From Rhodopirellula sp. (lineage in GTDB: Bacteria > Planctomycetota > Planctomycetia > Pirellulales > Pirellulaceae): a stretch of 41,707 bases of DNA. Positions 35,743 to 41,707 of the stretch are shown here, one piece after another (the first letter of the stretch is position 1; each line of letters opens with the position of its first letter). Made by a program: the position numbers and the translations under genes. The notes under the pieces were generated by a model. It was not told the origin of the DNA, ran no database searches, and saw only the letters and a program-made list of their open reading frames with translations. The DNA lies in contig NZVD01000051.1 in NCBI GenBank assembly GCA_002701385.1, positions 177,626 through 219,332 on the forward strand. The letters run 5' to 3'.

Positions 35743-37422
35743 TTATTCATCAGTAACACATCCTTCGGAAGCGCTCTTTACACATTTTATATATTTGTAA
35801 AGTGTGCCTCGGTTTACTTTGTAAGCAGGTGCTTCCCATTGAGCCGCTCGCGTTGCCAATTCATCGTCGCTCAGATCCACATTAATAACATTGTTTTCAG
35901 CATCGATTGTAATCGTATCTCCGTTTTGAATCAGTGCGATGGGGCCGCCCACTTGAGCTTCAGGAGTTACGTGCCCGACGATGAAGCCGTGAGAGCCTCC
36001 GGAGAATCGGCCATCGGTCATCATCGCGACTTTGTCACCAAGTCCAGCTCCCATGATGGCGGAGGTGGGAGTTAGCATTTCTGGCATTCCGGGTCCACCG
36101 GTGGGGCCTTCATAGCGAATGATAACAACATTGCCAGCAACGATCTTTCCATCTTCAAGTGCCTGAAGCATGTCTTCTTCGCTATCAAAACAATTCGCCG
36201 TACCTGTGAATACGAGTCCTTCTTTACCAGTGATTTTTGCCACGGCCCCTTCCGGGGCAACGTTTCCACGCAGGATACGCAGGTGCCCGGAGGACTTGAT
36301 CGGTTCTTCCACGGTTTGGACAATCGTTTGTCCTTCAGCCAATCCGGGGAGTGCGGCAAGATTCTCGCCCAGCGATTTTCCGGTAACCGTCAGGCAGTCA
36401 CCATTCAGGTAGCCTTTATCCAGCATGTACTTCATGACCGCTGGTGTGCCTCCCACGCTGTGTAGGTCTTCCTGAACGAATTTTCCTGATGGTTTCAAGT
36501 CGCCAATATAGGGGACTCGGTCACTGACTGCCTGGAAATCATCAATACTAAGTTCAATGTCAACACTCCGAGCGATGGCCAGTAAGTGCAACACAGCGTT
36601 CGTCGATCCGCCTAGGGCCATCACCATCACCATGGCATTCTCAAAAGCTTCGCGTGTCATGATGTCACGGGGCTTGAGGTCCATGGTCATAAGATTATGG
36701 ATGGCAGCTCCTGCTTCATGGCATTCCGTGATTTTGTCAGGATCTACAGCCGGAATGGATGCGGAGTAGGGGAGTGACATTCCCATCGCTTCAATGGCCG
36801 TTGCCATGGTATTAGCTGTGTACATACCTCCACAGGCACCTGCACCTGGACAGGAATTTCGGACAATAGCCTGACGGGTTTCGTCGTCGATCTTGTCGGT
36901 AAGATACTCCCCATAACTTTGGAAGGCTGACACGATATCAAGCTTCTGGTTGTTGTAGCAACCAGGCTTAATTGTTCCACCGTAAACCATCAATGCAGGA
37001 CGGTTTAGTCGTCCCATTGCCATAATACAGCCGGGCATGTTTTTGTCGCATCCGGGGATCGTAATTAAGGCATCGTACCACTGAGCTCCCATAATGGTTT
37101 CAATCGAATCTGCAATGAGGTCGCGCGATTGAAGCGAGAAGCTCATCCCATCCGTTCCCATACTGATTCCATCAGATACGCCAACGGTATTAAAACGCAT
37201 TCCATACAGTCCGGATTCGGTGACACCCTTTTTAACTTCTTCAGATAGGTCCAGCAGGTGCATATTGCAGGGGTTGCCTTCATACCAGACACTTGCGATC
37301 CCTACCTGAGCTTTATTCATGTCATCTTCGGACATGCCGGTTGCGTAGAGCATGGCCTGTGAGGCGCCTTGGCTTCGTGGCTGGGTAATACGCGAGCTGT
37401 ATTTGTTCAAGGAGTCGGTCAT
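35743..37422 (-). CDS. ilvD: Dihydroxy-acid dehydratase
   Basis: Third enzyme of branched-chain amino acid synthesis; dehydrates dihydroxy-isovalerate and dihydroxy-methylvalerate in the cytoplasm. The 559 residues fit the family. The three [2Fe-2S] cysteines are visible: Cys52 in [10 protein letters not shown], Cys125 in [11 protein letters not shown] (next to Lys126, the carbamylated residue in known structures) and Cys197 in [16 protein letters not shown]. The end of the enzyme contains [12 protein letters not shown] and [13 protein letters not shown]. The position of these residues indicates the [2Fe-2S] class rather than the [4Fe-4S] one. No other ilv genes are adjacent. The transcript ends at the terminator downstream. 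Confidence 0.96.
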
Positions 37423-37482
37423 TTGGTTTTAGTCTCTGTGAGGCAATGGGTAAAAAGTGATTGGACGACGATATTTGCATAT

Positions 37483-37494
37483 GGCGTAATCGCC
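37483..37494. promoter_or_regulatory. Short inverted repeat in the ilvD / DUF1080 divergent region
   Basis: GGCG-TAAT-CGCC is a perfect four-base-arm dyad located 61 bases upstream of the ilvD start. It could be an operator half-site pair, but arms this short also arise by chance. Confidence 0.2.
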
Positions 37495-37543
37495 TAGCAG
37501 TACATCGGCGTAGGCATTTATTTTAGAATTGAATGACTGACCT

Positions 37544-37552
37544 TGCTAGAAT
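37544..37552 (+). promoter_or_regulatory. Extended -10 promoter candidate for the DUF1080 gene
   Basis: TGCTAGAAT matches an extended -10 element (TG, one base, then five of six of TATAAT). No good -35 box is present at the expected spacing. It lies about 70 bases before the ATG at 37621. Confidence 0.3.
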
Positions 37553-37620
37553 GCTATTGCTCTTCCTGTACAGGTATTCATTTGAATTATCTTTCTCAAA
37601 TCAGATTGGATAGAAGATCT

Positions 37621-38274
37621 ATGACCAGACTACTCTGTTTTCTCGCCTTAGTCTTTGTAGTGGGGGTATCTGCACTTGACGCTAAAGAACCGAATCAGCT
37701 TGAAAAGGGATTCGAGTCGATCTTTGATGGTAAATCATTCAAGGGATGGGAAGGGAATATGAAATGGTTCCGGATCGAGGACGGCGCGATTATTGCCGGC
37801 AGTCATCGTCAGACCATTCCCAATAACGAATTTTTGTGTACCACCAAAACTTATGGCGATTTTGAGTTGAGATTGCAGGCCAGATTGATTGGTAAAGCTT
37901 ATCGTAATGCGGGGATTCAGTTTCGCAGTAAGAGGATCCCTAACCATCATGAAGTGATCGGCTATCAATGTGATATGGGAGTGATGGGGGAGAATAACAT
38001 CTGGGGCTGGTTGTATGACGAGTCTCGTCGCCGCAAGTTTTTAGTGGAAGCACCTCAAAAACCGGTTATTGACCATTTCCGCAAGGATGACTGGAACGAC
38101 GTTGTGATTCGTTGTGAAGGAAAACAGATCCAAATTTGGATCAACGGGATCTCTACGGTTAAGTACTCTGAAGAGGACTCAGCGATTGCTCGTTCTGGGG
38201 TGATTGGCCTCCAGGTTCATGGTGGCCCAGCGCAAGAAGCTTCTTATCGCCATATCAGGATCAGAACGCTTTAA
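37621..38274 (+). CDS. Secreted DUF1080 (3-keto-disaccharide hydrolase-like) protein
   Basis: A 217-residue secreted protein. The signal peptide covers LLCFLALVFVVGVSALDAKE (cleavage near residue 22). The mature part is a DUF1080 concanavalin-like sheet: FESIFDGKSFKGWEGNMKWF at the start, EDGAIIAGS, the family block DFELRLQARL with NAGIQFRSKRIPNHHEVIG, then DDWNDVVIRCEGKQIQIWIN and GVIGLQVHGG near the end. Planctomycetes carry many paralogues, thought to act on or bind glycosides. I chose the ATG at 37621 because the longer in-frame start at 37543 would bury the signal peptide behind 26 residues. Confidence 0.88.
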   Translation: MTRLLCFLALVFVVGVSALDAKEPNQLEKGFESIFDGKSFKGWEGNMKWFRIEDGAIIAGSHRQTIPNNEFLCTTKTYGDFELRLQARLIGKAYRNAGIQFRSKRIPNHHEVIGYQCDMGVMGENNIWGWLYDESRRRKFLVEAPQKPVIDHFRKDDWNDVVIRCEGKQIQIWINGISTVKYSEEDSAIARSGVIGLQVHGGPAQEASYRHIRIRTL

Positions 38275-38566
38275 GAATTGCCACTTTTGTTGCTTGTTCT
38301 ACAGAGCGGATATTGATTGTTTCTTAAAGGTAAACGGCCGATCTTTACACAAAAACCACGTGTCCTTATTGGGAATTTAATGGCCTAATCACTCGCAAGA
38401 AATGACCAAGTCTTAGCGGGATCACAATGCTCCTAGTACAATGGTAGAGTAATATTGTGGAGCGAATTTCGTTTGCTGTGGACAGTATGAGCGAAACCGT
38501 GTTAATTTCACTTGACCCTGCACTAATAATTAGAGTTAAACGAGGAATTGGGGCTGAAGAGAGAAT
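38275..38566. other. 292-base intergenic region before the giant gene
   Basis: No gene is visible here. TTGACC at 38512-38517 is a good -35-like box, but the bases 17-18 positions downstream (TTAAAC) are a poor -10. GAGAG just before the ATG at 38567 could serve as a ribosome site. No terminator for the DUF1080 gene stands out. Confidence 0.35.
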
Positions 38567-41500
38567 ATGCCAATGAGTTTACGACGTAAAACTAAACCAG
38601 TTTTATCCTCCAAAGACCGTCGATCTATCGAAAAGAAAGTCGCTGCGCGGCTTTCTTTGGAAACGCTGGAAAAACGTGAATTACTTGCAGCCGACTTGGT
38701 TGGTGGTCTGGCTGATTTGGCCGAGGGCGAAGGCGACCCGAAAGTTCAAATGCGATTGATCGCTACCGATTTACAGGGGCAGCCTCTTGATACTCTCTAT
38801 ATAAATCAGGCCTTTCATTTAAACGGTTATGTCAAAGACCTTCGTGCTGATGCCAAAGGCGCATTTACATCCTACATGGATATTGATTTCCACAAGGGAC
38901 TGGTTGAGGCGATCGGTGCGATTTCCCATGCGGAGCCATATAACAACTTTAAGTCGGGAAGTGTCGATGTTTCGGGATCATTAGGTGTGATTGACGAAGT
39001 TGGTGGCATGGCCGGACTCACCGAACTGGGGGGAGACGAACGACTTGTGTTCACGGTGCCGATGCGGGCGATCGGTGCTGGTACCGTGGTGTTTGATGGA
39101 AATGCAGCTGATACATTGCCGGCTCACCAAGTGCTTGTTTATGGTGAAAATGATGAGGTACCGCCATCACTCATTACGTTTGCAGATTTATCTTTGGAAA
39201 TCAGTGACTTAGGGTCATTGCCTTACAGCGAAGATTTTAATGATGGCTCGGCGGATGCCATGACTGTTACTCAGGGTTCTTTTGAAATACAGCAAAATCG
39301 CTATCAATCGACGCCGGCCAATGCACAGGACACGGCGATAACTGTGATTGACTTGACTGCCGACATCCCGTCAAAGACTCGATTTCAATCGACAATCAAT
39401 CTGGAGTATGCGAATAATCGACGACGCAATGCGCATTTGGTGTTTGCATATCAGGATGCCGACAATTACAAATTTGCAGGATTGAATGCTGAGTCAAGTC
39501 GGTGGGTAATCTCGGAAGTGGTTAACGGGCAAACTAGAGAGCTTCGTCGAAGTAACGTGAATCCGACTCAGAATAAGAATTATCAGTTGGAGTTAGTGAT
39601 TGATGGCTCACGAGCTACTTTAAGTGTGGATGGAGTGACTAAAGTTGCGAACACATTTAGTGGTAACTTAAACGTTGGCAAGTTTGGTTTGCTGGCTGAC
39701 GGTGCGAATAGTCGCTTCGACAATGTACATATTTCAGAGATATTCCCGGTACCGCTGTCTGAGCAGGATGTGGCGGAGACGGTGAAGGGCCAATCCATCA
39801 CGATTAATGTGTTGGCCAATGACAGCCACGAGCAGGATGGGGCGGCGCTCCATATTGTCTCGGTGGAAGGTGTGGATAATGCTACCGTTGAGTTGCAGGA
39901 CAACAATAGTGATAACAAAGCCGACGTTTTAGTCTTTACTCCGGATAGTGATTTTACTGGTTCTGAGATATTTACCTATGTGGTTGGAGATTCCAACGGC
40001 CAGACGGATTCGGCGGATGTACTGGTTGATGTGCTTCCAGGGATTCCATTAGAAGAAGATTTCAGCTCGGAATCACCAGCTGGTTTCGAGGTGGTGACCG
40101 GTAATTGGCGAGTAGAGAATGGCGCGTATGTTGCTCAGAATCGGGGAGGTCGTTCACTGGCTAAAATCCGTACAGGAGCCGTCAATCCGACTGAAACGGA
40201 ATTTTCTGCAACCATCTCGATGCCACGAGTGTCCGGATATAACTCCAATGTCGAGTTGGTTTTCGACTATGTCGACGGGGATAACTATAAATTTGTCGGT
40301 GGAAGTGTCGACAGTCGTATGTGGTATCTGGGGAAGGTCAGTAATGGTCAGCGAAGTGTCACGCAGACTGTAAGGGCCGAAATTGGGCGTCAGGAATATG
40401 AATTGGTCGTGGTGATTCGCGGTAAATCGCTCACCTTTGAAGTTGGAGAAGAGACAGTATTAAGTCACGACTACGAAGTGGCTCCTAATGCCGGGTTGTT
40501 TGGTTTAGCTGCCGATCGTGCCAAGCCTGTTGTAGATGATATTAGGATTCGTGAATTTGTACCGGCTCCGGTTGCCGAGGACGATGCAGTACAGACGGTA
40601 GTCAATACGCCTGTAGATATTGCTGTGTTAGGCAATGATGGTCATGAAACCGATGGGACGTTTATTTACATAGAGTCTGTTTCTAGTGTTGAGAACGGAA
40701 CGGCAGAGCTGAAAGACACTAATGATGATGGCAAGAACGATACGATTACGTTTACGCCAGCCACGGATTATCGTGGTACGACGTCTTTGGAGTATGTGGT
40801 CAGGGATAATGATGGCCAGACGGACCGCGGCGATGTCTTGATCACGGTGGCAGCCGCGTTGCCGTTGGAGGTGGACTTCGATGACGGTACTGCCGTTGAC
40901 TTTAATTACACGTCGAACAAGTGGCGTTTTAACGGTGGTGGGTTCCAGTCGACGGATACTCGCAGTGTGAACATTGCGACGACGAACCTTGGTGTTGAAC
41001 TTCCGGGTAAATACAAGGTTGGTGCAGTTCAAACGACTCAGGGATACCTTGCTAGCGGGTTCGTATTTAATTACACGGACGTTAGTAATTACAAGTACGT
41101 CCGCCAGACGAGCCAGGGTTACCAGATAGGTCAGGTAGTCTCAGGTCGTAATACGGTATTGAAGAACATTCGAGAGACGGTTCGCACGGATCGTAGTTAT
41201 GAATTAGAGCTTCACGTGGAGAATCAGCAGGTAAGTCTTCTTGCCGACGGTGTTGTGAAGGCGAGTGTGACGGTTGATGGTACGTTGAATGACGGCCAGG
41301 TAGGGTTGTACACGTACCGTAGTCAGACGAAATTCGATGACTTCTTCGTGAAGGAAATTGTTCCCACGCCGGTGGCCGTGGATGATACGCGTCAGACGAT
41401 CGTGAATACGCCAGTGACGTTGAATGTGGTAGCCAATGACAGTCACGATGTGGACGGTACGGCGTTCTCGATCGTGAGTGTGACTCAGCCAGAGCATGGG

Positions 41501-41707
41501 AGTGTGACGTTTGACGCTGGGGCAGGTACGGTGACGTATACTCCCTCGGCGGACTGGCGAGGTCAGGCGGAGTTTAGTTATACGGTAGCGGATGATGCGA
41601 ATGTGACACGCAGTGACCGCGGCGATGTCTTGATCACGGTGGCAGCCGCGTTGCCGTTGGAGGTGGACTTCGATGACGGTACTGCCGTTGACTTTAATTA
41701 CACGTCG
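38567..41707 (+). CDS. Giant modular LEPR-XLL-type surface/secreted protein (3' end outside window)
   Basis: The frame from ATG 38567 stays open to the last base (1047 codons). The N-terminus is basic and ends in LETLEKRELLAAD, the LEPR-XLL-type motif of planctomycete giant exported proteins. After a first domain of about 215 residues come repeated modules starting at 39218, 40043, 40859 and 41651 (275, 272 and 264 codons apart). Each has a concanavalin/LamG-like sandwich opening with a PLEEDF-like motif and containing DADNYKF, DGDNYKF or DVSNYKY, then a cadherin/Ig-like domain with VLANDSHEQDG, VLGNDGHETDG or VVANDSHDVDG. Asp-rich loops suggest calcium binding. Codon use changes sharply near 40580. 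Likely role in adhesion or glycan binding; inferred. Confidence 0.85.
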   Translation, partial: MPMSLRRKTKPVLSSKDRRSIEKKVAARLSLETLEKRELLAADLVGGLADLAEGEGDPKVQMRLIATDLQGQPLDTLYINQAFHLNGYVKDLRADAKGAFTSYMDIDFHKGLVEAIGAISHAEPYNNFKSGSVDVSGSLGVIDEVGGMAGLTELGGDERLVFTVPMRAIGAGTVVFDGNAADTLPAHQVLVYGENDEVPPSLITFADLSLEISDLGSLPYSEDFNDGSADAMTVTQGSFEIQQNRYQSTPANAQDTAITVIDLTADIPSKTRFQSTINLEYANNRRRNAHLVFAYQDADNYKFAGLNAESSRWVISEVVNGQTRELRRSNVNPTQNKNYQLELVIDGSRATLSVDGVTKVANTFSGNLNVGKFGLLADGANSRFDNVHISEIFPVPLSEQDVAETVKGQSITINVLANDSHEQDGAALHIVSVEGVDNATVELQDNNSDNKADVLVFTPDSDFTGSEIFTYVVGDSNGQTDSADVLVDVLPGIPLEEDFSSESPAGFEVVTGNWRVENGAYVAQNRGGRSLAKIRTGAVNPTETEFSATISMPRVSGYNSNVELVFDYVDGDNYKFVGGSVDSRMWYLGKVSNGQRSVTQTVRAEIGRQEYELVVVIRGKSLTFEVGEETVLSHDYEVAPNAGLFGLAADRAKPVVDDIRIREFVPAPVAEDDAVQTVVNTPVDIAVLGNDGHETDGTFIYIESVSSVENGTAELKDTNDDGKNDTITFTPATDYRGTTSLEYVVRDNDGQTDRGDVLITVAAALPLEVDFDDGTAVDFNYTSNKWRFNGGGFQSTDTRSVNIATTNLGVELPGKYKVGAVQTTQGYLASGFVFNYTDVSNYKYVRQTSQGYQIGQVVSGRNTVLKNIRETVRTDRSYELELHVENQQVSLLADGVVKASVTVDGTLNDGQVGLYTYRSQTKFDDFFVKEIVPTPVAVDDTRQTIVNTPVTLNVVANDSHDVDGTAFSIVSVTQPEHGSVTFDAGAGTVTYTPSADWRGQAEFSYTVADDANVTRSDRGDVLITVAAALPLEVDFDDGTAVDFNYTS
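40823..40915 (+). repeat. Perfect 93-base direct repeat, copy 1
   Basis: Identical base for base to 41615-41707, at a spacing of 792 bases, which is exactly one module. It spans the end of one cadherin-like domain and the start of the next concanavalin-like domain. Confidence 0.97.
41615..41707 (+). repeat. Perfect 93-base direct repeat, copy 2 (runs to window end)
   Basis: Second copy of 40823-40915. Identity is still complete at the last base of the window, so the true repeat is longer than 93 bases. Confidence 0.97.

What the first reader, a model, noticed from the sequence alone, without database searches (positions are those of the whole stretch)
40580..41707. Abrupt codon-use change inside the giant gene
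By hand count ACG is used for about 25 of 30 Thr codons in module 3 and about 12 of 14 in the cadherin part of module 2, but only about 5 of 20 in module 1. GTG and CGT also become dominant. The break lies mid-module near 40580, which suggests that the distal modules came from a different source or have been homogenised as a block.
Basis: seen in the sequence. Interest (0 to 1): 0.52.

Follow-up and report, generated by a model that had tools for sequence, protein, structure and literature searches.

The report
Threonine codon patch in surface-protein gene
Inside a bacterial surface-protein gene, about 1.1 kilobases spell threonine almost only as ACG; the change is real and, compared with related species, touches only this amino acid, most of the protein there looks native rather than imported, and the stretch lies in a cassette that has been duplicated in tandem where the assembly breaks.

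Summary
The step exists. Thr is ACG in 10 of 39 codons before 40595 and 36 of 44 after it (duplicated end excluded); 0 of 100,000 shuffles give so sharp a break. Of 61 ORFs with 30 or more Thr (232 sampled from this genome), this one has the most extreme window: 27 of 30, next 14.

The window ends at a contig end. The gene resumes on contig C6, where ACG is ordinary (6 of 30), so this is an internal patch, not a distal block. It spans a Big_9 domain and a lectin-like module, both orthologous to congeners at the same ~70% identity as the flanks, plus a Big_9 core absent from the one complete orthologue. A 792-bp unit starts a second copy (93 of 93 nt identical).

So 'different source' is not supported for most of the patch. 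Duplication is supported but does not explain the codons. Codon-level, Thr-specific evolution in place fits best (0.4); its cause is open.

The parts
38567..41707 (+). Tandem-95/Big_9 surface-protein gene, 1047 codons, open at the contig end; resumes on contig C6 (outside the window) for 558 codons
   Evidence: ORF list; own-genome search; NCBIfam tand_rpt_95 101.3 bits over cutoff 90; Pfam Big_9 1.2e-42; C6 frame
39221..40564 (+). Module 1 (lectin-like + Big_9) and lectin part of module 2, ordinary Thr codon use
   Evidence: codon counts; orthologous to G002/G008/G005
40565..40846 (+). Big_9 domain of module 2 (m2B): start of the ACG patch (first ACG of the run at 40595), Thr ACG 12 of 14
40859..41359 (+). 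Lectin-like jelly-roll domain of module 3 (m3L), Thr ACG 14 of 17; CBM66-like predicted fold; raised synonymous conservation in the genus
41441..41614 (+). Extra Big_9 core (B'), 58 aa, absent from the complete orthologue; Thr ACG 5 of 8
   Evidence: no counterpart in the G002 protein; Big_9 3.6e-17 for 41399-41614
40823..40915 (+). First copy of the start of the duplicated unit
   Evidence: 93 nt, 100% identical to 41615-41707
41615..41707 (+). Second copy of the start of the unit, cut by the contig end; spacing 792
   Evidence: contig C2 has 219332 bases and the window ends there
41335..41440 (+). 106 nt shared with the first bases of contig C6 (1 difference), the other end of the array

Best explanation
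The gene encodes a planctomycete surface protein built of CBM66-like lectin modules alternating with Big_9 Ig-like domains. SHOWN: in this lineage the stretch m2 Big_9 - m3 lectin - extra Big_9 carries a patch in which Thr is written ACG, and compared with congeners only Thr has shifted; the cassette starts a second, identical copy at the contig end. INFERRED: the patch arose in place, mostly after the split from the sampled congeners, by codon-level (translation-level) evolution favouring ACG. New Thr codons there were gained as ACG and inherited ones were switched to ACG. ACG has its own tRNA-Thr(CGU), and it is the least used Thr codon in ribosomal-protein-sized ORFs, so the plausible effect is a change of local decoding tempo or tRNA use over this cassette, not faster translation. 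The tandem duplication is a separate event at the same place that copies the patch.
For: Thr only: over sites shared with congeners, own is higher in ACG at 15 Thr sites and lower at 1 (28 sites); non-Thr GC3 53 higher, 57 lower (208 sites). In frame only: NAC before G, which makes ACG out of frame, is 13/38 in the patch and 182/542 in background. It holds before A (8/9), G (14/16) and T (9/9), less before C (5/10). Orthologous protein at unchanged identity. Thr present in own and absent in G002: 13 of 15 are ACG in m2B+m3L, 1 of 11 upstream. At shared Thr, own-only against other-only ACG is 9:0 (G002), 9:1 (G008), 8:0 (G005). The same direction, weaker, runs through the gene in four congeners: outside the patch 98 of 279 Thr are ACG against 69.5 expected (z 4.0, taking the sampled backgrounds as exact). 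tRNA-Thr UGU, GGU and CGU genes are all present.
Against: No reason for selection is known. ACG is only 41 of 209 Thr in ribosomal-protein-sized ORFs. The downstream part of the same gene is poorer in ACG than its orthologues (2 sites higher, 14 lower), so no gene-wide preference exists here. Ser, Pro and Ala codons of the patch end in G somewhat often too (15 of 39 against 447 of 1779 in background), although not more than in congeners (Ala 1 higher, 3 lower). Seventeen large ORFs (60 or more Thr for 15-plus of them) in relatives' loci with big Big_9 genes, the G002 orthologue among them, show no clear ACG clustering (lowest: 23 of 400 shuffles reach the value), so this is no general habit. 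m3L is mildly ACG-rich in G002 (7/13) and G005 (5/8 of the half that is held), and G002 has other local highs (7/10 in m2L), so part of the bias may be older. No nearer relative than about 70% protein identity was found to date the shift.
Confidence: 0.4

Rival explanations
1. Allelic replacement: the stretch from about 40500 to the end of the array was swapped in by homologous recombination from an unsampled relative whose Thr codons are ACG-rich.
For: Sharp 5' edge and return to ordinary codons on C6; B' has no counterpart in the complete orthologue; m2B is closer to G008 (0.83) than the other modules held in full; Thr usage varies within the genus (ACG 0.19-0.36).
Against: None of 9 sampled genus genomes exceeds ACG 0.36; a donor with other codon habits should shift other amino acids too, and none shifts against congeners; identity to G002 does not change at the break.
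Confidence: 0.27
2. Founder and homogenisation: an array of near-identical cassettes spread one codon-odd founder copy, and the visible patch is the sampled edge of that array.
For: 93/93 nt repeat at spacing 792; C6 starts with 105/106 nt of the unit; a contig end lies inside this gene or its homologue in 7 of the 8 genus genomes with a match, and the G007 contig ends in a 125-nt repeat at 94%.
Against: m2B (12 of 14 ACG) lies before the visible unit and is orthologous to m2B of congeners; copying a founder does not explain why the founder was ACG-rich at so many separate sites (36 of 44 without the repeated end); other large ORFs examined show no such patch.
Confidence: 0.2
3. Assembly chimera: the last ~1.1 kb of contig C2 belong to another organism of the metagenome.
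For: The genome is in 100 contigs and the patch lies at a contig end; single Ns in the C6 part.
Against: C6, which carries the same downstream neighbour (xylose isomerase) as four of five congener C-terminal pieces, starts with 106 nt of the same patch; the step falls inside a single open frame; G002, G008 and G005 are only 60-76% identical in DNA to this gene module by module, so a false join between such species would need an unusual long exact match.
Confidence: 0.06
4. Nucleotide-level cause: a DNA motif, local mutation bias, mRNA structure or an antisense gene.
For: CpG observed/expected 1.44, equalled or exceeded by 1 of 638 windows; synonymous sites in m3L and the m3 junction are unusually conserved in the genus (117/189 at orthologue codons 950-990, above the maximum of 200 shuffles); stop-free antisense stretches of 163-170 codons in own.
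Against: No out-of-frame ACG excess; mRNA folding near that of same-composition shuffles (mean z -0.61 vs -0.26 upstream); two antisense stretches tried match no Pfam family, long antisense stretches also occur in G002 and G005 but not in the G008 piece, and no Rfam family reached its cutoff in 37400-41707.
Confidence: 0.07

Closest known systems
Tandem-95 repeat proteins (NCBIfam NF012211) / Pfam Big_9 PF17963
   Same: P0001 scores 101.3 bits against a cutoff of 90 with 3 stretches and has 3 Big_9 stretches
   Different: Big_9 domains alternate with ~170-aa lectin-like domains; codon patch not part of the family definition
CBM66 carbohydrate-binding modules (B. subtilis, 4b1m/4azz)
   Same: Predicted module 3 model matches at target-normalised TM 0.78-0.83
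   Different: 12-13% sequence identity; binding residues not examined; no sequence family above cutoff for 40862-41362
Intragenic homogenisation of repeats (for example spider silk genes, PMC3933166; title and start of abstract seen in the search listing only)
   Same: Repeat units alike within one gene
   Different: Here the codon shift is limited to one amino acid and extends outside the visible unit

Membership tests
tandem-95 repeat protein (NF012211) | score above curated cutoff, repeated ~95-aa domain | tested here: met
   101.3 vs 90 bits, 3 stretches
Big_9 (PF17963) | score above gathering cutoff 23.6 | tested here: met
   145.2 bits over P0001; 63.5 bits for 41399-41614
CBM66 | jelly-roll fold | tested here: met
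   Foldseek top hits 4b1m/4azz; model mean pLDDT 79.5, pTM 0.65, from 8 sequences
CBM66 | sequence family match and sugar-binding residues | tested here: inconclusive
   no Pfam match over cutoff for 40862-41362; residues not tested
Horizontally acquired segment | lower relatedness to congeners than flanks | tested here: not met
   own-G002 identity 0.74 (m2B) and 0.72 (m3L) vs 0.68-0.74 in other modules; not testable for the B' core, which G002 lacks
Horizontally acquired segment | codon use shifted across amino acids | tested here: not met
   only Thr shifts relative to congeners
Tandem-duplicated cassette | near-identical adjacent copies | tested here: met
   93/93 nt at spacing 792; full second copy not seen because the contig ends
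Tandem-duplicated cassette | copy number in the genome | not testable with these tools
   needs long reads or read depth

The most novel reading that the evidence does not exclude
A single-amino-acid codon programme: one cassette of a surface protein has been rewritten so that Thr is read almost only through ACG, making its decoding depend on tRNA-Thr(CGU) and giving it its own translation tempo or a sensitivity to that tRNA's charging, apart from the rest of the protein.
Probability: 0.15. Interest if true: 0.7.

Novelty: new variant of a known kind. Interest (0 to 1): 0.42.

Why it matters
Codon-use steps inside genes are usually read as imported DNA. Here orthologues show a mostly native protein with a step limited to one amino acid, in frame only and confined to a duplicating cassette, which is a different signature and can be scanned for in other genomes. 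It also suggests why assemblies of this gene fail at one module, so gene lengths taken from such assemblies may be too short.

Tried and rejected
Donor in the own genome: the DNA search gave only the gene itself and C6; in the protein search the 7 matches outside the gene had at most 43% identity. Donor in the family: 241 genomes searched, 60 with a match at 1e-10; the best hits to the m2B/m3L stretch are congeners, and hits covering mainly B' reach 51% in the rows listed. Named genome contigs: 2 loci, both congeners. Viral contigs: 3 loci at 36% to part of the lectin domain, taken as generic. General habit of large genes: not seen; one gene of G044 reaches 24 of 30 ACG, but its genome background is 0.60. 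DNA motif: rejected by frame. mRNA structure: apparent excess stability (mean z -1.53 against genome codon use) shrank with a same-composition control (-0.61). Antisense gene: no Pfam match for two stretches. Translational optimum: ACG is not favoured in ribosomal-protein-sized ORFs (picked by place around the L22 gene and by length, not named one by one). GAT-rich C-terminal part (41 of 44 Asp): its best 30-Asp window (28 of 30) is equalled by another ORF of the genome, so not pursued. N-terminal region 38699-39220: no Pfam and no PDB sequence match. Literature: three full-text searches. The query Planctomycetes + giant genes + codon usage gave 0 papers; of 23 and 59 papers held by the other two, the 15 listed each time show no title on such a patch. 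No paper was opened.

An early MAFFT alignment of the gene pieces misplaced modules and was replaced by pairwise alignments to G002. In the m3B row the own counts double-count an overlap of the two own pieces; they are not used. The first changepoint run had 1 of 5,000 shuffles, the larger runs 1 and 0 of 100,000. Contig C1 (L092) was left out of the own background as compositionally foreign; it was included. In some searches the orthologues used are G002, G008 and G005, and also G001; the G003 and G007 pieces were not used there. G003 has another downstream neighbour and may be a more distant copy.

Full report
What was checked. The window is G000:C2:177626-219332 and its last base is the last base of contig C2. 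The gene in question runs from 38567 to the contig end without a stop (1047 codons). It belongs to the tandem-95/Big_9 kind and carries a weak match to the planctomycete extracellular motif near its start (PF07595, below cutoff). Upstream lie a gene that NCBIfam does not name (37543-38274) and ilvD. Contig C6 begins with 106 nt that match window 41335-41440 with one difference, continues in frame for 558 codons to a stop, and is followed by a xylose isomerase gene. Of five congener pieces that hold the gene's C-terminus, four (G001, G002, G005, G008) have the same neighbour by sequence likeness and G003 has not (read by eye). C6 is therefore most likely the other end of this gene, with an unassembled gap between.

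The codon step. Thr is ACG in 3/10, 5/20 and 2/9 codons of the three upstream segments, 12/14 in 40580-40846, 26/33 in 40847-41707, and 6/30 in the C6 part after the shared bases. Background is 247 of 888 in 38 ORFs of the window and C6 and 0.25 in a sample of 87,163 codons. A changepoint scan puts the Thr break between 40454 and 40595; 1 of 100,000 shuffles reach it with the duplicated last 93 nt and 0 of 100,000 without. Of 232 sampled ORFs, 61 have 30 or more Thr; none of the others reaches more than 14 ACG in 30, this one 27. In the same scan over every codon, only ORFs on contig C1, which looks foreign, give more extreme windows.

Only Thr, only in frame. In the patch (345 codons) ACG is 36/44 (p 7e-13), ACC 1/44 and ACA 1/44; the next codons are AGT 12/22, CAG 15/16 and GGT 16/29 with p near 1e-3; GTG is 20/46 with p 0.035. 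Compared site by site with G002, G008 and G005, own Thr is higher in ACG at 15 sites and lower at 1, while non-Thr GC3 goes 53 up and 57 down. So the milder non-Thr leanings are shared with orthologues. ACG in the next frame is not enriched: NAC before G is 13/38 in the patch, 182/542 in background. Ser, Pro and Ala codons end in G in 15 of 39 cases against 447 of 1779, a mild excess. This argues against a DNA motif or a general mutation bias.

Relatives. In the genus, 9 genomes were searched and 8 have a match to the 40847-41634 protein. G002 (contig of the same length as PBCP01000085.1, a Planctomycetaceae MAG) holds the only copy seen whole, 1506 codons stop to stop. In the other 7 of 8, the own genome included, a contig end falls inside the gene or its homologue: by my reading of the pieces, in or at module 3 in own, G008, G005, G001, G003 and G007; in G006 after about 52 residues. 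G003 and G007 are more distant (32-44% in their best matches). G005 is listed with 10 contigs, yet two of them end here. In G007 the contig ends in a 125-nt stretch that is 94% identical to an earlier module. This is what repeats too alike to assemble would give.

Orthology across the break. Own against G002 is 0.72, 0.69, 0.74, 0.69 upstream, 0.74 (m2B) and 0.72 (m3L) in the patch, and 0.68, 0.72, 0.69, 0.72 downstream. So most of the patch is native. Thr residues found in own but not G002 are ACG in 1 of 11 cases upstream and 13 of 15 in m2B+m3L. Downstream, own is poorer in ACG than congeners (2 up, 14 down). The gene leans to ACG in four congeners too: outside the patch 98 of 279 against 69.5 expected, in its homologous stretch 26 of 70 against 17.2 (sampled backgrounds taken as exact).

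The duplicated unit. 40823-40915 recurs exactly at 41615-41707, spacing 792. Between them lie the module 3 lectin domain and a Big_9 core (41441-41614) that G002 lacks; in G002 the lectin domain is followed directly by the Big_9 domain that in own lies on C6. The simplest reading is at least two lectin copies with at least one extra Big_9 between; the copy number is unknown. The module is predicted as a jelly-roll close to CBM66, so the likely role is sugar binding at the surface, with Ig-like spacers (inference).

A second signal. In module 3 and its junction, synonymous codons are more alike in the genus than elsewhere: own-G002 110/187 against 348/845 (Fisher 1.5e-5), and over four genomes 117/189 at orthologue codons 950-990 where the largest of 200 shuffles gave 0.57. 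Between about codons 830 and 905 almost only own and G002 contribute. Part of this is shared codon preference. It may reflect exchange between lineages at a repeat, or constraint; this is not settled.

Controls in other genes. Seventeen ORFs with 60 or more Thr from relatives' loci (one of them the G002 orthologue) were tested for clustering of ACG by shuffling; the lowest figure was 23 of 400 shuffles reaching the observed value. So patchiness of this kind is not a habit of such genes in these relatives.

Mechanism. Import fails two tests (identity and multi-residue codon shift), except for the B' core, where the first could not be made. Duplication is real but does not reach m2B. Fast-translation selection is unlikely, since ACG is 41/209 in ribosomal-protein-sized ORFs, although a tRNA-Thr(CGU) gene exists. 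What remains best is codon-level evolution in place restricted to Thr, cause unknown, at 0.4; replacement by an unsampled ACG-rich allele at 0.27; array founder effects at 0.2. These figures are judgements.

Noticed in passing
G000:C1 (L092, 10901 bases): AT-rich codon use (AGA 28 of 30 Arg, TTA 24 of 30 Leu in one ORF's best windows) unlike the rest of the genome; probable binning contaminant or mobile island.
   Followed up: no
G003:C168 (L054 coordinates 649-2166): An ORF reads from what looks like an amino-acid permease (by eye) straight into a Big_9-type domain that is 82% identical in DNA over 132 nt to the start of the G003 gene piece; a fused gene or a misassembly at the repeat.
   Followed up: no
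window 40859-41480 and orthologues (G002 codons about 800-1000): Raised synonymous conservation across the genus at the lectin module and junction where the array forms.
   Followed up: partly
G000:C6:311-1678 (L003): C-terminal part of the same gene uses GAT for 41 of 44 Asp and GAA for 22 of 25 Glu, and is poorer in ACG than its orthologues.
   Followed up: partly
G000:C6 positions 305, 326, 605: Single N bases in the gene, perhaps polymorphic or low-support sites.
   Followed up: no
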